Positions 388 through 7,754 of a stretch of DNA of 8,050 bases are shown in pieces. Source of the stretch: an uncultured Lachnospiraceae bacterium. Its GTDB lineage: Bacteria > Bacillota_A > Clostridia > Lachnospirales > Lachnospiraceae. The translations under genes and the position numbers were made by a program. How positions within the stretch are numbered: position 1 is the stretch's first letter; each line of letters opens with the position of its first letter. Under the pieces are notes generated by a model, which was not told the DNA's origin, did not search any database, and worked only from the letters and a program-made list of their open reading frames with translations. The stretch is from positions 1 to 8,050 of the forward strand of contig CAJKKX010000090.1 in the NCBI GenBank assembly GCA_905200565.1, in the 5' to 3' direction.

Positions 388-491
388 TTTCCTTTTCCTC
401 CTATCCTTTTTATGTCATCCAAAGCTGACGCTTCCCCAACTGTCAGCTTTTTATAATACCATACTTTCAGCAATTTTTCTATTATATTCAC
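384..491 (-). CDS. Possible 35-codon linking/leader ORF (VNIIEKLLKVWYYKKL...)
   Basis: A GTG at 491 opens a 35-codon frame ending in a TGA at 386-384. Its GTG overlaps the stop of the upstream 38-residue peptide (GTGA), and its stop overlaps the ATG of the secreted protein (ATGA), which would make a continuous chain of coupled translation. The central part reads EKLLKVWYYKKLTVGEASA, and a related peptide can be read from the second copy of this region at 4450-4577. No good Shine-Dalgarno precedes the GTG. Base differences between the two copies fall largely at first and second codon positions, which argues against strong protein-level selection. The same DNA also carries the likely promoter of the secreted gene. 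It could be a leader peptide, a decayed gene end, or simply conserved 5' DNA. Confidence 0.25.
   Translation of the reverse strand: MNIIEKLLKVWYYKKLTVGEASALDDIKRIGGKGK
421..450 (-). other. Inverted repeat AAAGCTGAC-N12-GTCAGCTTT in leader copy A
   Basis: Two perfect 9-base arms (421-429 and 442-450) flank a 12-base centre. The structure lies between the likely -10 (453-458) and the ribosome binding site of the secreted gene. In copy B the equivalent arms are 4491-4499 (less one base) and the CTGGC/AAAG side near 4511-4521. There one arm has changed to CTGGC, which still pairs with GTCAG through a G-U wobble, with a two-base bulge. Retained pairing despite base changes suggests a folded 5' leader or a palindromic operator next to the transcription start. 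No T-run follows on the minus strand, so it is not a terminator for these genes. Confidence 0.5.
453..463 (-). promoter_or_regulatory. Likely extended -10 promoter for the secreted gene (copy A)
   Basis: On the minus strand the bases read TATGGTATTAT, an extended -10 (TG-N-TATTAT) with the hexamer at 458-453. Transcription would start near 446. There is no convincing -35 at 17 bp. The equivalent place in copy B reads TATGGTATTTA, so the element is kept between the copies. Read-through from the upstream operon is also possible, as no terminator is seen between 488 and 387. Confidence 0.45.
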
Positions 492-604
492 GCATTTGTT
501 CGTTCTTTTTCGGTACTCGCTGCTATAAATGCAATAACACCCACAAATGTAATTCCGAGTAGTTTTCCGGCTTTTTTTAATTTAGCAGTTACCCGGTCCT
601 TCAT
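488..604 (-). CDS. Small single-pass membrane peptide (38 aa)
   Basis: ATG 604 to TGA 488 encodes a 38-residue peptide beginning MKDRVTAKLKKAGKLL, with a hydrophobic segment at about residues 15-30 (LLGITFVGVIAFIAAS) and a charged tail ending STEKERTNA. The layout, a basic amphipathic start then one membrane helix, fits a small integral membrane peptide with its N-terminus inside. The start lies 6 bases after the stop of the zinc-ribbon protein, and GAGGTGAT overlapping that stop could serve as a close Shine-Dalgarno. The tight spacing suggests it is translated as part of the operon. Its last bases fall in the duplicated leader region. I do not recognise a family; a chance ORF cannot be excluded, but position, start site and membrane profile favour a real gene. 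Confidence 0.55.
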   Translation of the reverse strand: MKDRVTAKLKKAGKLLGITFVGVIAFIAASTEKERTNA

Positions 605-610
605 ATCACC

Positions 611-1312
611 TCATCGTGTCCTTTGTTTGTATTCCTTCTGTCTTGCCGCATCAAATCCTAACAGAACCTGCGGATTTTTGGTATGAATAAGCGCAGCAAG
701 CGTCTTTATTTCTTCACCTCCTGCATTATTGCTCAGTTTTAATTTGCAGAAGGATCCTATTTTCCCCTTATTATCGCCAATCATTGCTTCTGACATGATC
801 GGGATAAACAAATAGCTTACCCTATGCCGGTAAACCCATCCGATATCCCTGTACCGGAAGAAACGACCGGAGCCTTTTCCAAAAACATAGTTTTCACTAT
901 AACGGACTTTGCCGTCAAGTATAGGCGAGGAAGCTGCAAATTCCCGAAGCATTTCTTCATAGGCGCCTGACGTGCGCATGGAAGAAATGCCTTTGCTTAC
1001 ACGGCTTCTGCCGATCGCCCACGGTATCCCAAAGCAGATTGCCACGCCCCCGTAGATAAATGCTCCCTGCGGCAATATGAATAAACAGGCTATTGTAAGA
1101 CCGCACATCACAATAAAAATATTCCGCGCTATATATGGCGTCACATACTTCTTAAAGGCTTTTTCATCAATCTGCTGATCCGACTGCCGCTGCTGTGGCT
1201 GCGTATTGTTTCGGGATGTCTTCTGCGCGGCGTTACTAACCTGTGCTGCGCCGCAATGGTTGCAAAATTTTGCATTTTCCGGAATCTGCTTCCCGCAATT
1301 CTGACAAAACAT
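611..1312 (-). CDS. Zinc-ribbon, two-TM membrane protein with cytoplasmic C-terminal domain
   Basis: This is a 233-residue protein. Residues 1-24 form a complete zinc ribbon with Cys3, Cys6, Cys17 and Cys20 (MFCQNCGKQ... FCNHCGAAQ). A polar Gln/Asn-rich linker (about 25-50) follows, then two adjacent hydrophobic helices at about 63-81 and 83-101. The C-terminal part, about 105-233, contains SENYVFGKGSGRFFRYRDIGW, YLFIPI and KNPQVLLGFD; with both termini predicted inside, it should be cytoplasmic. The 'Y...FRYRDIxWVY' region reads like a small beta-rich domain, possibly PH-like, seen in hypothetical Clostridia proteins, but I cannot name it with certainty. The start is supported by AAGGAGG 10 bases upstream. 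It lies 23 bases after the transglutaminase-like gene and 6 bases before the 38-residue peptide. Zinc-ribbon/TM proteins are often regulatory or assembly factors at the membrane; that role is inference here. Confidence 0.85.
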   Translation of the reverse strand: MFCQNCGKQIPENAKFCNHCGAAQVSNAAQKTSRNNTQPQQRQSDQQIDEKAFKKYVTPYIARNIFIVMCGLTIACLFILPQGAFIYGGVAICFGIPWAIGRSRVSKGISSMRTSGAYEEMLREFAASSPILDGKVRYSENYVFGKGSGRFFRYRDIGWVYRHRVSYLFIPIMSEAMIGDNKGKIGSFCKLKLSNNAGGEEIKTLAALIHTKNPQVLLGFDAARQKEYKQRTR

Positions 1313-1335
1313 TCTGCTTGTTCCTCCTTCATTCG

Positions 1336-2574
1336 TTAATAGAAATCCAATTGATATTCCATATAAAAATATTCGTCATACGGACACAACGGATAGTATT
1401 GATACTGAAAGTTCATGCCTGACCAGCCGGAACTGCCGATATAATCCGCCACCGGATAAATCAGACTATATTGGTACTCGTCACCGGAAAGATTTTCTAT
1501 CTGCTCTATGGTATCACTGCCCTTTACAAGAAAGGTGAGACGGTGGTCCCCAATTCCTCTGTTTATCGCCTGCGTATAAAGAAAATCGAAAAACGATTCG
1601 ACAGAATCTATCATATGTGTACCGTCAAGTCCTAACTGACCTATTACATCATATTCCCACTCTGTCCCGTACAGCGCCTGATAACTCACATCGTCAGCAT
1701 CGCACGCCGGCAGCAGCATTCCCTCTCCTGTTCTTAACCGTCCAAGACCGCTTTCAACCTCAAAGATAATTTGCGCATCCAATGTATTGAAATACTCATA
1801 GGCTATATAAGACGGATATTTGTCTGCTTCATTATAAAAATCATCCCATGTAACATCACAATTATAATAATTCCCATTGATTTTTATCAGATTCCATGCA
1901 TGATAGACCCAGTCTCTTTCTTCCATACTGTAAAGTGTACCCACACAAAAATAGCAGGGAACGCCCCGTTTCATCATCAGATATTGAAACGCACGCGTAT
2001 AACCAGAACATACCGTTCTATTTTCAACAAAAACGCTGTAAATGTTTTGATCATATGCACCCGACTGATAGGTTGTATTTTTGCACAGATAATCATGAAA
2101 AAATCTCTCTGCCTCTATATCAGAAAGACCGTCCGCTTCCTGCAATACTCTGTCGGCAGCATCCTCCACCAGCGCCCGATTATGCTCCAGATCCTGGGCG
2201 AGGATATTATATCCAATCTCTATTTTCAAAACCTTCTCTGTATCGCCGCCGCATGTAAAAAGGCAATCGTTTGACTCGTACCAGAATAACTGAGGCTGAT
2301 CGTACGATATGTAATGTAAAATATTGCTGACAGTCGATCTGCGTAATTCGTAAGAGGGAACTATCTCCTTTTCTCCATTTTCAATACCGGCTAATATTTC
2401 TTCATATACTACTTTTTCCCGGTCTGGCAGCAGGGCGTAAAAAGGAAACATCTCCCCGTCCAGCCCTTCCGGCTGTTTGTTTTGTATATTTGCGGTCTGC
2501 TGCAATCCGTCAAAAATTGCTCTTCTGTTTGCCATAACAGATGCTGCTGCAGCCATTGCCGCAAGTATCATCAC
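1336..2574 (-). CDS. Exported transglutaminase-like (papain-fold) protein
   Basis: About 412 residues from GTG 2574. The transglutaminase-like core is at about 150-265, with the full catalytic triad in family context: Cys189 in TVCSGYTRAF, His225 in VYHAWNLI and Asp240 in CDVTWDD, followed by the usual aromatic YFNTLD. Bacterial proteins of this fold act as proteases, peptide cross-linkers or cell-wall enzymes; the substrate is not predictable here. A hydrophobic N-terminus (MILAAMAAAASVMA) indicates export or membrane anchoring. The C-terminal 130 residues are Tyr/Asp-rich and unassigned. The start is uncertain: AAGGAGG at 2613-2619 is 38 bases from this GTG but only 5 or 8 bases from in-frame ATT 2607 or ATA 2604, which would add a basic segment (ISRFCEKLKAV) that completes a signal peptide. 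It lies in the operon between the small two-TM protein and the zinc-ribbon protein. Confidence 0.85.
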   Translation of the reverse strand: MMILAAMAAAASVMANRRAIFDGLQQTANIQNKQPEGLDGEMFPFYALLPDREKVVYEEILAGIENGEKEIVPSYELRRSTVSNILHYISYDQPQLFWYESNDCLFTCGGDTEKVLKIEIGYNILAQDLEHNRALVEDAADRVLQEADGLSDIEAERFFHDYLCKNTTYQSGAYDQNIYSVFVENRTVCSGYTRAFQYLMMKRGVPCYFCVGTLYSMEERDWVYHAWNLIKINGNYYNCDVTWDDFYNEADKYPSYIAYEYFNTLDAQIIFEVESGLGRLRTGEGMLLPACDADDVSYQALYGTEWEYDVIGQLGLDGTHMIDSVESFFDFLYTQAINRGIGDHRLTFLVKGSDTIEQIENLSGDEYQYSLIYPVADYIGSSGWSGMNFQYQYYPLCPYDEYFYMEYQLDFY

Positions 2575-2641: not shown

Positions 2642-2905
2642 TCATTTTGATACTTTCTCTTTTTTATTTGCCTTGCAAATCAAGATAACGCCTATGATAC
2701 CGGGCAGGCAGTAACCAAGCAATTCAAAAAAGCCTGCAGGTCCGGAAACCAGCATAACCAAAACATTGCCGGATGAAATTCCTCCGATAAGAGCCAATAT
2801 CTGCAAACAAATTAATACAATTCCCACTTTTTTCTTAATGTTCTTATTCTTAACGCCAGAGGAATGCGATGCAGTTCCTTTTGGTCTTACTCTCTGGACG
2901 ACCAT
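2642..2905 (-). CDS. Small two-TM membrane protein (about 87 aa), overlapping the upstream gene
   Basis: From ATG 2905 the product is 87 residues. A basic segment (VKNKNIKKK) is followed by hydrophobic helices at about 27-43 (VGIVLICLQILALIGG) and 60-78 (FELLGYCLPGIIGVILIC) and a lysine-rich tail ending KKEKVSK, so both ends are probably cytoplasmic. The frame is open further upstream to 2956, inside the gene before it, but ATG 2905 has AGGA 8 bases upstream and is the more likely start. It overlaps the 3' end of the triple-repeat gene by 19 bases in another frame, a sign of translational coupling. The first 25 residues look unlike a finished domain and may be recruited from overlapping sequence. 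The family is not recognised. That a membrane protein is encoded here is well supported; the exact start is not. Confidence 0.65.
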   Translation of the reverse strand: MVVQRVRPKGTASHSSGVKNKNIKKKVGIVLICLQILALIGGISSGNVLVMLVSGPAGFFELLGYCLPGIIGVILICKANKKEKVSK

Positions 2906-4449
2906 CCATTCTGTCCTGTCAGAGCAAAGCCCTGTTCCAGCAAAGACTGCCCGCATTCCTCCGCCAGCAGGAATCCATTTTGTACAGAGAGTCCCAGATA
3001 CTCCGCAACAAGTGCAGCCGCATCCGGATTTCCTTCATCCAGACACTGAAAATCCAGCCACACCCAGAAATAGTCCTCTTGATATTCTTCTTCCCCAATG
3101 CTGATGGAAACAAGCTCCGACCAATCGCTTTGTCTGATCTTTTCTATCATCGTCACATAGCTGGATACCAGATCTGCATATCCGTCCACGCTGGAATTTA
3201 GATTCACATCCACCGTAACTCTGGACACAAAAGCAGAATCTTCTTCACTCTGCAAACCAACCCTGCAATAATCGTAGCCCGAATCCGAATATCTGATTTC
3301 AAAATCCTTGCTTTCCCATCCCCAGACGCCTCCGTCGTCAAGTCCAAAGCCTGCTCTCACTGTACGCGACGCTGTAAGATAATCTATTTCTCCCGCTTCC
3401 ATTTCAATTCCCAGAAGCGACGTCGCCAGCTCCGCCACATAGGGATCTTTATCCAGGCAGCTAAAAACAAAATCTACCTGGTATCCGCCGGATGCAGCAT
3501 CCTCTGCTATGATGATCAGGGAAGAGTTTTCGCGATACATGTAGCCGCCCGCTTTCAGTTCCTCCAGACGCATCTCTGCCGCCTGAGCAGCGTTTACGAA
3601 GCTGCTTCCATCCGGAATGTCTGTGCTGTAAATGTGACCGCGGATCAGATTCACCCTACTGTTCAGAAAATCAAAGGTGATCCACGAAGCTCCCGCGCTG
3701 CCCTCATGCCAGTCGGTCGACTCTCCCGGATACGCCTCCTCACTGCTTTCTGTTCCCATACTGTTTTCCGTCTCCGCGCTGCTTTCTTCTTTCTCCGAAT
3801 CCATTGAAAAATCCGGCACGTCATAGGTCGTCTCCAGTAAGGTATAGCCAAAGCCAAGCATAGCCTCCCCGGCTTTGTCAATCGTTATTCTGCCGTTATC
3901 AGCCTCAAATCCGATAAAGGCTGCCGCCAGCTCCGCCACGTCCGTATGCTCCTCCAAAGATGCAAATTCAAACGTCTCGCTGTAATCATAGCTTTCAGTA
4001 TTTTCTGTCACTATCACAAAGGAGGCATCGCTTACGCCCATTTCTTCCAGTAAATCCGATGCAATTTCGGCGTCTTCTCTGAGTCCGTCCAGGTAGCTTA
4101 CATCCACCGCCGCTGCATCATACACCGTGATTGCTCCGGAAACTGTATCGACAATTCCGTCCTCTCCATAAAAAAACTTCGTATATGTGCGGCCTGTATC
4201 GCCCTCCATGACAAACGTTTTGCATTCGTTTTCCTTTTCCTGGGTATCAAAGGTAAAACTGTCCGGTACATCAAAAGCTTTCGCCTGTGTGAAGTTACCG
4301 GCTCCGGTAACAGTGTATACCGTTACAAATGCCGCTGCAACCGCAGCGACTTGGGTGACACCCCTGCGAATCCCGTTTCCTTTTGGCTTTTGCGGAGCGC
4401 AAGCCGTATACTTTTCCGGAATCTCTTTCCCGCAATTTCTGCAAAGCAT
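2887..4449 (-). CDS. Membrane-anchored protein: defective zinc ribbon, one TM, three extracytoplasmic repeats
   Basis: 520 residues from ATG 4449, with AGGAGG 10 bases upstream; an alternative TTG at 4491 has no such site. Residues 1-20 are a zinc ribbon (MLCRNCGKEI...) with Cys3, Cys6 and Cys17, but the fourth cysteine is missing: compared with the neighbouring zinc-ribbon protein, four residues (xxCG) are absent. One TM helix follows at about 31-47. The acidic outer part has three diverged units, at about 64-204, 254-370 and 381-512. Each ends in a pattern like F-x-F/L..L..-x-x-x-V/A-AEL..-LG...G.I/L....A.....GF. A Ser/Glu-rich linker separates units 1 and 2. The unit layout recalls the YehR/DUF1307 lipoprotein domain, with a glycine-marked strand then a final 'L..GF', but this is only a resemblance. 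It is the first gene of the operon, behind the paired-box promoter. Confidence 0.85.
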   Translation of the reverse strand: MLCRNCGKEIPEKYTACAPQKPKGNGIRRGVTQVAAVAAAFVTVYTVTGAGNFTQAKAFDVPDSFTFDTQEKENECKTFVMEGDTGRTYTKFFYGEDGIVDTVSGAITVYDAAAVDVSYLDGLREDAEIASDLLEEMGVSDASFVIVTENTESYDYSETFEFASLEEHTDVAELAAAFIGFEADNGRITIDKAGEAMLGFGYTLLETTYDVPDFSMDSEKEESSAETENSMGTESSEEAYPGESTDWHEGSAGASWITFDFLNSRVNLIRGHIYSTDIPDGSSFVNAAQAAEMRLEELKAGGYMYRENSSLIIIAEDAASGGYQVDFVFSCLDKDPYVAELATSLLGIEMEAGEIDYLTASRTVRAGFGLDDGGVWGWESKDFEIRYSDSGYDYCRVGLQSEEDSAFVSRVTVDVNLNSSVDGYADLVSSYVTMIEKIRQSDWSELVSISIGEEEYQEDYFWVWLDFQCLDEGNPDAAALVAEYLGLSVQNGFLLAEECGQSLLEQGFALTGQNGWSSRE

Positions 4450-4577
4450 GTTTCTCTTTCCTCCTGTTATCCTGCTTTTAATGGCATCCAAAGCTGACGC
4501 TTCCCTGGCTGCCAGTTCTTTATAAATACCATACTTCCAGCACTTTTCCTATTGCCTGCGTGTACTTCGTTCTTTTT
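4450..4577 (-). repeat. Leader-region repeat, copy B
   Basis: This is the counterpart of 388-510. It runs from the ribosome binding site of the triple-repeat gene through the extended -10 to TTCGTTCTTTTT. Unlike copy A it has one extra T next to the -10 (TATTTATAAA against TATTATAAA). That T shifts the peptide frame shared by the two copies, so no linking ORF like the one at 384-491 survives. The downstream part of the frame (YKELAAREASALDAIKSR) runs in frame into the zinc-ribbon protein, but without a normal start codon. Confidence 0.8.
4523..4533 (-). promoter_or_regulatory. Extended -10 of the operon promoter
   Basis: The minus strand reads TATGGTATTTA, with the hexamer at 4528-4523 and TG one base before it. 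The slot for a -35 at 17 bp (4546-4551) reads TAGGAA, a poor match, which suggests an activator is needed. The paired boxes at 4574-4603 lie 45 bases upstream of this hexamer. Confidence 0.55.
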
Positions 4578-4603
4578 GTGTACAAACCTGCGTCTTTTGT
4601 GTA
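4574..4603 (-). promoter_or_regulatory. Paired TACACAAAA boxes, 21-bp pitch (operon promoter)
   Basis: Two identical 9-base direct repeats, TACACAAAA on the minus strand, occupy 4603-4595 and 4582-4574 with 12 bases between them. The proximal one is also the half of a palindrome TTTGTGTACAAA (4575-4586). A third partial copy, TACACGCAG, lies at 4564-4556. Two 9-base direct repeats with a 12-base gap, about two helical turns upstream of a weak -35, is the general architecture of binding sites for LytTR-type response regulators, although the base sequence is not the usual LytTR consensus. The same pair occurs in front of the STAND gene. Confidence 0.6.
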
Positions 4604-4643: not shown

Positions 4644-7613
4644 TCACTCCGTTCTCAGTAACTGCAGCCGCTTCTTTGCCTCCCTCGTCATCTCATGCTC
4701 CGTTCCAAATGCCTGCTCCATGTAGCCGACAGTCTCCGTAAGCCAGCGCCGTTCCTCTTCCCGATCTCCGAGCTCATGAGAAATCCGTGCCAGATTATCG
4801 CAGACCTGCGCCGTGATCGGGATGTCGCGGTTCTCTGTATCCGAGATCAGCTCCCCGTACACTTCTGTAAGGTATACGCGCGCCTCCGCAAGCTTTCCCA
4901 TTTTCATTTTCAAATGACCGACATTATTTTTTGCGCGCCGGACCATGCCCTTTGTCGCCGTATACCGTTCATAAATAGCAAGGGCTTCCTCCGTATAGAA
5001 AAGCGCTTTTTCATACTGTTCCATACGGCAGAAAGCAAATCCCAGGGCATAGCTTATATATGCCGTCTCCGTGTGATTTTCCCCGTAATAAGCGCGTGCG
5101 TACTCCCGTGCAGCCTCCAGGGATGCAACCGCGCTCTCATCCTGCACTTTGGTAAGCTCCGCCATTCCCTTCCAGTAAAAGAACAGATACTGCCAGAGAA
5201 TATCCGCCTCTCCGATGCTCGCGCAGAGCTCCTCCTGCGCTTTCCGGAACATCTCCCACTGTTCCGTAAAAAAATAATAGCGGCCCTTTTGCATGAGAAC
5301 TTCTCTGACCATCTCCGCATCCGGCTCCGGCTGCAAAAGACTCTCGCTCCTCTTTATCCAGCAGGGGATCTCTTCGAAATCGTTCTTCTCCAGAAGAATC
5401 TTTATGATATAACGCGAGATTTCCAATTTCAGTCCAGCATTCTGCATTTTTTCCCAGAATTCCCTGCACTGTTCCAGAGCCTTATTAAATTTTCCGTCGT
5501 GGATCAGCGTCCTGATATAAGCCACATAAAAATACTCCGCCAACTCTTTCCCCTGTATGGCATTTGCAGAGTCCGCTTCAAGCTCTGCGAATATACGTTC
5601 ATATTCCTCCGCAGACGTTTCGATTTCATATGCCTCCAGGATCAGACACCGGAGCCGCCATGCAAAAGGCAGATCCGGATATTCCTGCCGGAAACGTGCA
5701 AGCCGCCGGAACATATCCCCGGAAAATCCGTATATCCGACCGACCGCTTCGATAGCCAGCAGCAAAATTCCAATCTGACGCTGAGTGCGTCTTCCGGTCT
5801 GCATTTTCTTCTCATAATACAATAAAATGCGGCAGATTTCTCCGATCTGAGGCGCCTTTGCAAACGCATCCGCAAGCATCCCGCCCTCAAGATACGTTGT
5901 TAAAACATCCGGACATGTCTCTCCCTGGCCTTCCGTTCCCTCCAAAAGAGCCGTCATCTGTTCCAGTACCCGCTCAAAGAAGTATTCCTTCCGCCTGGGT
6001 CCGCGATTTTCCAGGCATTCCGCTATAAAGGGGTGCATGGAAAATCCATCTCCCGATTTTTCAAGGAACCCCTGCCAGCACAGCATCCCAAGCCGTCTTT
6101 CTATCTGTGCCGCGCTTTCCGTCCGTTCCATAAAGTATTTCCACAGAAAGCTTCCGGAATAAGCACGGTAAGGCAGTCTCGTATAGATATCCAGTACCTG
6201 CCGGTCCTTCCCGCTTAAATGATCCAGCTGATACACGCGCTCATAAACCTGTCTAAGAAACACCGACGCCGCCTTTTCCTCCCGGAAAGCCAGCGCGCTG
6301 CCTCTCATAAACCGATCTCTCAGCTCTTCCGGGCTCCAGTTACCGGAGCCGACGGTCCTGCCTAAGAAGCGCAGCGTCAGCGGGTGCCGGCTGCCCTCAT
6401 GCTCCAGCATCTGCAGAAGCGCCACCTGGCTTTCCTTCGTCAGCATTTTTCCGTAATGATCCCGAAAGATCAGACTTCCGGCTTCGGCGCTGAGACTTTT
6501 AATTTCAAAGGTGGTGAATCCGGGCAGCTCCCTCACCCGGGAGGTTGCAAAGATCGTTGCGGGCAGACTGCAAAGCTCCTTTATCCCCTCATCCTTCGCT
6601 GCAGTATGGTCTATATTATCAATGAGGATCAGCACGCGTTTATTTTCAAGAAGACGGATGCGCGCTAATATTTCCTTAAAGTTTTTGTTCAGATCCGTAT
6701 GTCCTGTTTCTGAAAAGGCAGCGACAAAGCTCATCGCCATGCTGTTTTCCCAGGAAATGAGGGCTGCCATATCGCAGAGATTCTCCTCCGCGCAAAGACG
6801 CAAAAGCTGACGCAGCAGTTCTGTCTTGCCGATCCCTCCCATACCGGAAATAAGATAGTGACCGCCGGTGAGCGCCATCTGTCGGAGTTCGAATAATTCC
6901 TGCTCGCGCCCGAAGAAATGCTGACTCGGAAGAGGACTCCTTCCCAGCTCTCCCGTCTGCTTTGTCAGAAATCTGATATACCTTTTTCTTTTTTCAGAAA
7001 GCTGCTCCACTTCCACTGTCTCCGCAGAAAAAGAGGCGAGGCAGGTCTGTTCTCTAAGCCTTCCCATCCGGCTCCCTGCCAGAGCAAATACGGTGAGCAG
7101 CGTCAGCATCCATGCGCTGTACTGTAAGCCCTTCCCCTCATCCATCCCCGTTTCCTCAATGCTTTTATAAAAGCTTTGAAAGTACCGGCTCAATTCCTGG
7201 TCGAAATACGGATCCTCCTCCAGGCAGTTCAGATACGCTTTCAGCTTCCACAAAAAAGCTTTCCGTGAAAATTCTCTTTCTTTAAGAAAATCCGCGAAAA
7301 GCTCCTGCTGACGCTTTAAGGCCCGAGGCGTAAGAAGTCTGACACATTCTTCCTCATAATTACCGTAAGCGGGCCGGGTGCCGGTGCGGTTGATCACCGT
7401 GGAAATGTGGCGGTTCCGTTTTCCCTCAGAACGCCAGATCATTTTTCCGTATTGTCCGGTGCGAAAATCTTCCGCCAGATAGGTCTGCCAGAATTTTACA
7501 AGCGTCAGCCCGCGCCGGTTCTTCTCGCTGAACACCGCCTCCGAGTACACCGGAAAATCCTGTACCGCAAACAAACGGTATATATTTTTCAGAGAAAGCA
7601 GCATTTTGCCCAT
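4644..7613 (-). CDS. STAND (NB-ARC-like) NTPase with C-terminal TPR repeats
   Basis: 989 residues from ATG 7613, with AGGAGG 6 bases upstream. Residues 1-230 are unrecognised, largely helical and basic, with a short hydrophobic run at 167-179. The NTPase module begins with the usual FGRE (234-237). It contains Walker A GMGGIGKTE (257-265), Walker B VLILIDNID (327-335), an ATSR motif (356-359), a GLPL-like HPLTLRFLG (410-418) and a winged-helix region ending in MHP (526-528), the counterpart of the MHD motif. This order marks the STAND class, ATP-driven switches that oligomerise when a sensor region binds a signal. The C-terminal part, about 680-985, is helical, with clear TPR units near 835-970 of the kinesin-light-chain type (YYGENHTETA..., EQYEKALFYTEEALAI), the likely sensor. 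STAND proteins include transcription regulators and antiphage or cell-death switches; no HTH, nuclease, TIR or protease is evident, so the output is unknown. It stands alone between a terminator and the operon promoter, which shares its boxes. Confidence 0.88.
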   Translation of the reverse strand: MGKMLLSLKNIYRLFAVQDFPVYSEAVFSEKNRRGLTLVKFWQTYLAEDFRTGQYGKMIWRSEGKRNRHISTVINRTGTRPAYGNYEEECVRLLTPRALKRQQELFADFLKEREFSRKAFLWKLKAYLNCLEEDPYFDQELSRYFQSFYKSIEETGMDEGKGLQYSAWMLTLLTVFALAGSRMGRLREQTCLASFSAETVEVEQLSEKRKRYIRFLTKQTGELGRSPLPSQHFFGREQELFELRQMALTGGHYLISGMGGIGKTELLRQLLRLCAEENLCDMAALISWENSMAMSFVAAFSETGHTDLNKNFKEILARIRLLENKRVLILIDNIDHTAAKDEGIKELCSLPATIFATSRVRELPGFTTFEIKSLSAEAGSLIFRDHYGKMLTKESQVALLQMLEHEGSRHPLTLRFLGRTVGSGNWSPEELRDRFMRGSALAFREEKAASVFLRQVYERVYQLDHLSGKDRQVLDIYTRLPYRAYSGSFLWKYFMERTESAAQIERRLGMLCWQGFLEKSGDGFSMHPFIAECLENRGPRRKEYFFERVLEQMTALLEGTEGQGETCPDVLTTYLEGGMLADAFAKAPQIGEICRILLYYEKKMQTGRRTQRQIGILLLAIEAVGRIYGFSGDMFRRLARFRQEYPDLPFAWRLRCLILEAYEIETSAEEYERIFAELEADSANAIQGKELAEYFYVAYIRTLIHDGKFNKALEQCREFWEKMQNAGLKLEISRYIIKILLEKNDFEEIPCWIKRSESLLQPEPDAEMVREVLMQKGRYYFFTEQWEMFRKAQEELCASIGEADILWQYLFFYWKGMAELTKVQDESAVASLEAAREYARAYYGENHTETAYISYALGFAFCRMEQYEKALFYTEEALAIYERYTATKGMVRRAKNNVGHLKMKMGKLAEARVYLTEVYGELISDTENRDIPITAQVCDNLARISHELGDREEERRWLTETVGYMEQAFGTEHEMTREAKKRLQLLRTE

Positions 7614-7674: not shown

Positions 7675-7703
7675 TACATATCATGTCTGAAGGAAAACTA
7701 CAA
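7675..7703 (-). promoter_or_regulatory. Promoter of the STAND gene
   Basis: On the minus strand a -35-like TTGTAG (7703-7698) is followed after 17 bases by TATGTA (7680-7675), with TG one base before it (TGATATGTA, extended -10). Transcription would start near 7668, leaving a leader of about 55 bases before ATG 7613. The in-frame ATG at 7673 would lie before this start and has no ribosome binding site. Confidence 0.55.
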
Positions 7704-7724: not shown

Positions 7725-7754
7725 TTTTGTGCACAAATTTCCGATTTTTGTGTA
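7725..7754 (-). promoter_or_regulatory. Paired TACACAAAA/TGCACAAAA boxes, 21-bp pitch (STAND promoter)
   Basis: Direct repeats TACACAAAA (7754-7746) and TGCACAAAA (7733-7725) are separated by 12 bases. Each is also embedded in a palindrome: TTTGTGCACAAA (7726-7737) and TTTTTGT-GT-ACAAAAA (7745-7760). The proximal box is 44 bases from the -10 hexamer, against 45 at the operon promoter. The distal palindrome overlaps the T-run of the upstream terminator. Likely the binding site of a dimeric regulator shared with the operon; the protein is not identifiable from this window. Confidence 0.6.

What the first reader, a model, noticed from the sequence alone, without database searches (positions are those of the whole stretch)
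7725..7754. Matched paired-box promoters in front of the STAND gene and the envelope operon
Both promoters have two 9-base direct repeats (TACACAAAA, with one TGCACAAAA) spaced exactly 12 bases apart, and the proximal box lies 44 or 45 bases from a TG-extended -10. Box sequence, pitch and distance to the promoter all agree at 7725-7754 and 4574-4603, while the surrounding sequence does not. This is hard to explain by chance and suggests one activator controls both units. The geometry recalls LytTR-type sites, but the consensus differs, so it may be a new site for an unidentified regulator.
Basis: partly seen in the sequence, partly recalled or inferred. Interest (0 to 1): 0.75.

Follow-up and report, generated by a model that had tools for sequence, protein, structure and literature searches.

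The report
Paired boxes mark STAND-gene promoters
Two matching nine-letter DNA boxes, two helix turns apart, sit ahead of a bacterial alarm-protein gene and a neighbouring surface-protein gene set; the same paired boxes recur ahead of distant relatives of that gene in other gut bacteria, so they look like a real switch, perhaps worked by the alarm protein itself.

Summary
TRCACAAAA-N12-TRCACAAAA occurs exactly at 4574-4603(-) and 7725-7754(-), 44-45 bases ahead of the -10 regions. Taken without regard to the motif, 8 of 17 upstream regions of this STAND-TPR family (window plus 16 relatives) carry an exact TRNACAAAA pair, always at pitch 21 and at no other pitch from 10 to 40. Three more have a degraded pair in the same place; six have none. 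Relatives with exact pairs are only 30-36% identical to the window's protein. Shuffles gave 0 of 25,500; 0 of 39 testable STAND genes lacking this family's N-terminal domain have the pair. Full-box composite promoters occur in 8 of 15 STAND-bearing genomes, 7 of them at the STAND gene. The boxes are not LytTR sites: consensus differs and they lie about one turn further from the -35. No neighbouring regulator gene is common to the loci. Favoured: the STAND protein activates its own gene plus, here, a neighbouring envelope operon. The binding protein is inferred, not shown. Against universality: in the closest relative with DNA at hand (85-86%) the STAND gene lacks the boxes while the downstream promoter keeps them.

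The parts
7746..7754 (-). distal box TACACAAAA of the STAND promoter
7725..7733 (-). proximal box TGCACAAAA of the STAND promoter
7698..7703 (-). -35-like TTGTAG of the STAND promoter, 21 bases after the proximal box
   Evidence: read; region conserved in L001
7675..7680 (-). -10-like TATGTA preceded by TGa, 44 bases after the proximal box
   Evidence: read; the scoring script preferred a later TAATAG
4644..7613 (-). STAND NTPase gene: uncharacterised all-helical N-terminal domain, nucleotide-binding core, TPR repeats (start at 7613 as in relatives)
4595..4603 (-). distal box TACACAAAA of the envelope-operon promoter
   Evidence: conserved in L001
4574..4582 (-). proximal box TACACAAAA of the envelope-operon promoter (TGCACAAAA in L001)
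4546..4551 (-). -35-like TAGGAA, 22 bases after the proximal box
4523..4528 (-). -10-like TATTTA preceded by TGg, 45 bases after the proximal box
   Evidence: read
2887..4449 (-). first gene of the envelope operon (zinc-ribbon-like start by eye, then a secreted or anchored protein); likely start ATG at 4449
   Evidence: no Pfam match
611..2574 (-). further operon genes: transglutaminase-like protein (1336-2574) and zinc-ribbon protein (611-1312)
406..540 (-). third, degenerate copy of the envelope promoter ahead of the gene running off at 1-387; proximal box remnant TACCGAAAA at 507-515, distal box lost

Best explanation
The paired boxes are the upstream regulatory element of a promoter type that belongs to one family of STAND-TPR proteins. 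A protein binds two TGNACAAAA boxes on one face of the helix (pitch 21, two turns), centred near -63 and -84, and helps RNA polymerase at a weak or ordinary sigma-70 promoter. Most likely that protein is the STAND protein itself: when its TPR part senses a signal it assembles, its N-terminal domain binds the boxes, and it raises its own transcription. In this window the same element also sits ahead of the adjacent envelope operon, so one signal would turn on sensor and surface proteins together. Shown by sequence: the element, its conservation, its geometry and its tie to this STAND family. Inferred: activation rather than repression, DNA binding by the STAND N-terminal domain, and the feedback loop.
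For: Exact pairs ahead of 8 of 17 family STAND genes, only at pitch 21; three more degraded pairs in the same place. The pair-bearing relatives are 30-36% identical to the window's protein and 31-54% to each other, apart from two close couples, so unselected DNA would not stay matched. 0 of 25,500 shuffled regions have an exact pair, and 212 kb of family loci hold no exact pair besides the STAND promoters and the L001 envelope promoter. 0 of 39 testable STAND genes without this N-terminal domain have it. In 16 of 17 aligned sites (11 STAND promoters, 6 others) the scored -10 lies 44-48 bases after the proximal box. In 15 STAND genomes the composite promoter hits 9 places: 7 STAND promoters, 1 other promoter, 1 coding hit without full boxes; the reversed control hits 3. 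Among seven loci (window, L002-L006, L009) all-against-all blastp finds no shared neighbour gene except a generic ABC-type ATPase pair in L004 and L009, so the STAND gene is the only constant partner. L002 and L004 are alike from the distal box onward and unrelated before it. Box base 3 (A, or C/T) tends to go with the N-terminal motif (RNRY[ITL]S, or [RK]NRYHS/RNRHIS). Known STAND proteins MalT and AfsR are transcription activators (passages).
Against: 6 of 17 STAND upstream regions have no pair: L001 (replaced locally), L008 and L167 (the gene follows another within some 12-24 bases, by reading), and L011, L012, L109. L011 and L012 have the most divergent N-terminal domains by eye; L109 is unexplained. 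The N-terminal domain matches no known DNA-binding family and no clear PDB fold. Full-length family members were found in only 3 of 397 sampled family genomes. The pair also lies ahead of other genes (type VII secretion operon in G526, a putative short RNA in G163), which a separate regulator would explain as well. One full-box composite site lies between genes in G144, where no family STAND gene was found. The link between box base 3 and the N-terminal motif rests on few lineages, may be shared descent, and has exceptions: the proximal box of L007 has G, and the AraC-gene site in G522 has A where its STAND gene has C.
Confidence: 0.45

Rival explanations
1. A separate regulator encoded elsewhere (LytTR-like, AraC-like or of an undescribed family) binds the boxes and activates the STAND gene and, here, the envelope operon.
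For: 9-base direct repeats 12 bases apart are the LytTR layout (PMC6193735, passages). Genes that look AraC-type by eye in G110 and G401 also have TTTGCACAAAA boxes at pitch 21, and an AraC gene (Pfam) in the STAND genome G522 has a one-mismatch pair with a good promoter 23 bases on. Genes other than STAND carry the pair (G526, G163). A full-box composite site exists in G144 without a family STAND gene.
Against: LytTR repeats in that paper read like ACC.CTTA and lie 4-11 bases from the -35, here 21-25. In G110 the likely -35 lies only about 10 bases on by my reading. No neighbour gene is common. A free-standing regulator with about one target per genome would be unusual.
Confidence: 0.38
2. 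The boxes are an operator for repression: the STAND protein or another regulator binds upstream and holds both units down until a signal comes.
For: Upstream direct repeats can also serve repressors (general knowledge); nothing here measures the sign of regulation.
Against: The boxes lie upstream of the -35 (near -63 and -84), a place more usual for activators than for simple repressors.
Confidence: 0.1
3. The A-tracts phased at 21 bases act as a bend or UP-like element for RNA polymerase, with no specific regulator.
For: ACAAAA tracts at a two-turn pitch upstream of -35; the degraded pair of L010 keeps the A-tracts best.
Against: The non-A positions of the boxes are kept too in the motif-blind set (TGNAC in L002, L003, L004, L005, L006 and L009). 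ACAAAA pairs with a composite promoter occur in 20 of 298 family genomes, the reversed control in 28 by my count of the rows.
Confidence: 0.05
4. The two sites are merely a recent duplication of one promoter fragment, without shared function.
For: Promoter fragments are duplicated here: the copy at 406-540 is one.
Against: Outside the boxes the two promoters are unlike, and boxes persist ahead of STAND genes whose proteins are 30-36% identical to the window's.
Confidence: 0.02

Closest known systems
LytTR regulatory system promoters (HdrRM and BrsRM type)
   Same: Two 9-base direct repeats mostly 12 bases apart upstream of the regulator's own promoter; direct autoactivation shown there for HdrR (PMC6193735, passages).
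   Different: Box sequence TGNACAAAA, not ACC.CTTA-like; 21-25 bases, not 4-11, to the -35; the gene driven is a STAND-TPR protein, not a LytTR regulator with a membrane partner.
STAND transcription activators MalT and AfsR
   Same: Nucleotide-binding core plus TPR-type sensor; for AfsR also the order N-terminal effector, core, TPR, and binding to direct repeats (abstract start and passages).
   Different: No LuxR-type or SARP domain was detected here; the N-terminal domain is an uncharacterised helical one; AfsR repeats are 11 bases, adjacent, and overlap the -35.
AraC/XylS-type direct-repeat operators
   Same: Pitch of 21 bases (recalled); AraC-like genes in G110 and G401 have TTTGCACAAAA boxes at pitch 21.
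   Different: Boxes further upstream; no AraC-like gene common to the STAND loci.
DeoR (SorC family) operator of Bacillus subtilis
   Same: Contains TGAACAAAA and a further direct-repeat half-site (PMC11229326, passages).
   Different: There the 9-mer is part of a palindrome ATTGAACAAAATTTCAAT in a 39-base operator spanning -60 to -21 for repression; no pair at pitch 21 upstream of the -35.

Membership tests
LytTR binding site | two 9-base direct repeats about 12 bases apart | tested here: met
   definition
LytTR binding site | LytTR-type consensus (ACC.CTTA-like; the GTT-containing form is recalled) | tested here: not met
   boxes are TRNACAAAA in the 8 exact family sites
LytTR binding site | repeats 4-11 bases upstream of the -35 | tested here: not met
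   21-25 bases for 16 of 17 sites; 21 for the window STAND promoter by my reading, 33 by the script
LytTR binding site | LytTR regulator and membrane-protein pair in the operon | tested here: inconclusive
   ORF starts of six loci read by eye, no neighbour gene common to seven loci; no profile scan of all neighbours
STAND transcription activator | STAND nucleotide-binding core with TPR-type sensor | tested here: met
   TPR_12 over cut-off, AAA_16 and NB-ARC below cut-off; model best matches STAND-TPR entry 6mfv
STAND transcription activator | recognisable DNA-binding domain (LuxR HTH as in MalT, recalled; SARP as in AfsR) | tested here: not met
   no such Pfam or NCBIfam match; structure comparison inconclusive
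STAND transcription activator | binds and activates target promoters | not testable with these tools
   needs binding and reporter assays
AraC/XylS operator | proximal half-site at or next to the -35 (recalled) | tested here: not met
   21-25 bases away in 16 of 17 sites
DnaA boxes | TTATNCACA-type 9-mers (recalled) | tested here: not met
   relatives have TGAACAAAA boxes, which do not carry the CACA core (by reading)

The most novel reading that the evidence does not exclude
The N-terminal domain of this STAND family is an undescribed sequence-specific DNA-binding domain. The proteins are self-amplifying one-component switches that carry their own paired-box promoter from locus to locus and capture a different output operon in each lineage (envelope proteins here, a type VII secretion operon in G526, a short RNA in G163).
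Probability: 0.3. Interest if true: 0.72.

Novelty: new variant of a known kind. Interest (0 to 1): 0.52.

Why it matters
STAND proteins in bacteria are mostly read as immune sensors or left without a role. A conserved promoter element tied to one gut-bacterial STAND family gives a direct handle on when the gene is on, what it controls and what its N-terminal domain does. It also gives a search key for output operons, and a test of whether STAND proteins without any known DNA-binding domain can be transcription regulators.

Tried and rejected

Rows left out of the 17: L168 (gene lacks the N-terminal domain), the core-only matches L060 and L110-L121, and L013-L052 (no N-terminal motif; these 40 are the control, where L024 had only 27 bases upstream and was not testable). 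Identities cover 15 of the 17 (not L011, L012). Per-position conservation is partly circular, since some sites were found with the pattern; the motif-blind evidence is. The -35 and -10 choices come from a score that I wrote. Hits of the pair with up to one mismatch in 12 STAND genomes are not much more common than the reversed control, so single such hits (G522 AraC, G526, L006) rest on their promoter context.

Full report
What is there. The window lies on a contig for which no whole genome is held. Its genes on the minus strand are a 989-residue STAND-TPR gene (7613-4644), then a promoter region, an operon with a zinc-ribbon-like secreted or anchored protein, a transglutaminase-like protein and a zinc-ribbon protein, then the start of a further gene at 387 whose relative in L001 is a WG-repeat protein. 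The STAND boxes start 141 and 120 bases before the start codon. They come directly after an intrinsic-terminator-like hairpin (7789-7760) behind the gene upstream.

Is it more than chance. Within the window 0.03 matches are expected at three mismatches. The stronger test uses relatives. One genome scan and two searches of whole genomes gave 16 further STAND genes with this N-terminal domain, divergent in L011 and L012. Taking 350 bases (200 for L108) before each of the 17 genes regardless of motif, an exact TRNACAAAA pair at pitch 21 occurs in 8: window, L002, L003, L004, L005, L006, L009, L165. L007, L010 and L108 have pairs with 3, 2 and 2 mismatches, reached by 2, 1 and 0 of 400 shuffles. 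L001, L008, L011, L012, L109 and L167 have none. No exact pair occurs at any other pitch from 10 to 40. A motif-free listing of direct repeats, made for the window and L001-L011, found the same pairs. Shuffling gave 0 exact pairs in 25,500 regions. L002 with L004 (76%) and L003 with L165 (93%) are not independent, nor window with L001 (85%); all other couples among the 15 compared are 25-55% identical.

Anatomy. lines up a different set of 17 sites: 11 STAND promoters (8 exact, 3 degraded) and 6 others (window and L001 envelope, L006 second copy, G526 secretion operon, G163 RNA, G522 AraC gene). In 16 of 17 the arrangement is box, 12 bases, box, 21-25 bases, -35-like hexamer, 17 or 18 bases, -10, with 44-48 bases from proximal box to -10. 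That puts the boxes near -63 and -84, two turns apart on one face, which fits an upstream activator (general knowledge of activator positions). The third box base is A in one group and C or T in another, and mostly matches within a genome: window both C; G526 C or T at both promoters; L006 both A; but in G522 the AraC-gene site has A and the STAND site C.

Specificity. In 397 genomes of the family, exact TRCACAAAA pairs occur in 5 and exact TGNACAAAA pairs in 18, the latter against 6 genomes with the reversed control as I count the rows. Of the 19 stretches examined only the one in G163, itself a STAND genome, has the composite promoter; 13 of the other 18 overlap an open frame of 100 or more codons. 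In 15 STAND genomes the composite pattern gives 9 hits in 8 genomes: 7 at STAND promoters, 1 in G163, 1 inside a coding frame without full boxes; the reversed control gives 3. In 298 family genomes the looser composite gives 22 hits in 20 genomes, the reversed control hits 28 genomes by my count; 2 of the 22 have both boxes in full, G163 and G144. The G144 site overlaps no frame of 80 codons and none starts on its strand in the next 400 bases, and G144 showed no family STAND gene at E 1e-30; it counts against strict specificity. STAND genes without the N-terminal domain have no pair: 0 of 40, of which 39 were testable, best 3 mismatches.

Other genes with the element. L001 (UBA7225, STAND 85-86% identical): pair ahead of the WG-repeat gene, which there follows the STAND gene directly; the window's middle genes are absent at this place. 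In L001 the STAND gene's own promoter is alike from just after the boxes onward, but the boxes are replaced by the end of a ROK-like gene (by eye) and a terminator-like stretch. G526: a pair with one mismatch ahead of a type VII secretion operon (FtsK/SpoIIIE with FHA domain over the EssC cut-off, YukD). G163: an exact pair with composite promoter ahead of what looks like a short terminated transcript, while its STAND gene has no pair. L006: a second copy with one mismatch downstream of the STAND gene.

What binds. All-against-all blastp of frames of 80 or more residues in seven loci (window, L002-L006, L009) finds, besides the STAND gene and its shadow frames, only a generic ABC-type ATPase shared by L004 and L009 (the name is by eye). 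The STAND gene is thus the only constant companion, and the similarity of L002 and L004 starts at the distal box, as if box, promoter and gene move as one unit. This makes self-regulation the simplest account, as shown for HdrR in LytTR systems and in keeping with the STAND activators MalT and AfsR (passages read). The weak point is that the N-terminal domain has no family match and no clear fold match; its model is all-helical at fair to good confidence over residues 1-190. Its conserved stretch GKxIWRxxGxRNRYxSxxCNRS is a candidate DNA contact by composition only. L011, which has no boxes, lacks that stretch, and L010, with a degraded pair, has it altered. This is suggestive, not proof.

Verdict. 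The identity of the regulator stays open; self-activation by the STAND protein is favoured at 0.45 over a separate regulator at 0.38.

Noticed in passing
window 406-540: Third, degenerate copy of the envelope-operon promoter and leader ahead of the gene running off at 1-387; the middle operon genes, absent at this place in L001, lie between the two promoter copies.
   Followed up: partly
window 1275-1328 and 4412-4465: Zinc-ribbon gene starts with ribosome-binding site are near-duplicates (78% over 54 bases), pointing to duplication within the operon.
   Followed up: no
L169 2267-8669 (G526): Type VII secretion operon (EssC, YukD and small proteins) headed by a paired-box promoter like that of the STAND gene of the same genome.
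   Followed up: partly
L171 8283 to about 8440 (G163): Exact pair and promoter followed within about 100 bases by a terminator-like hairpin and no long reading frame: a possible small RNA.
   Followed up: no
L062 and L063 near 1501 (G110, G401): AraC-like genes (by eye) preceded by TTTGCACAAAA boxes at pitch 21, in G110 only about 10 bases from a -35-like site; possibly their own operators.
   Followed up: no
L214 near 1498 (G144): Full-box composite promoter-like site between genes in a genome where no family STAND gene was found.
   Followed up: partly
L006 17147-17176: Second copy of the STAND promoter about 8 kb downstream, in a region with AMP-binding genes.
   Followed up: partly
L001 1225-1345: Boxes of the STAND promoter replaced by the end of a ROK-like gene and a terminator-like stretch, with the core promoter kept.
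   Followed up: yes
proteins P0132, P0136, P0138, P0139: Near-identical N-terminal domain fused to unrelated protein ends on short contigs; probably chimeric assemblies.
   Followed up: partly
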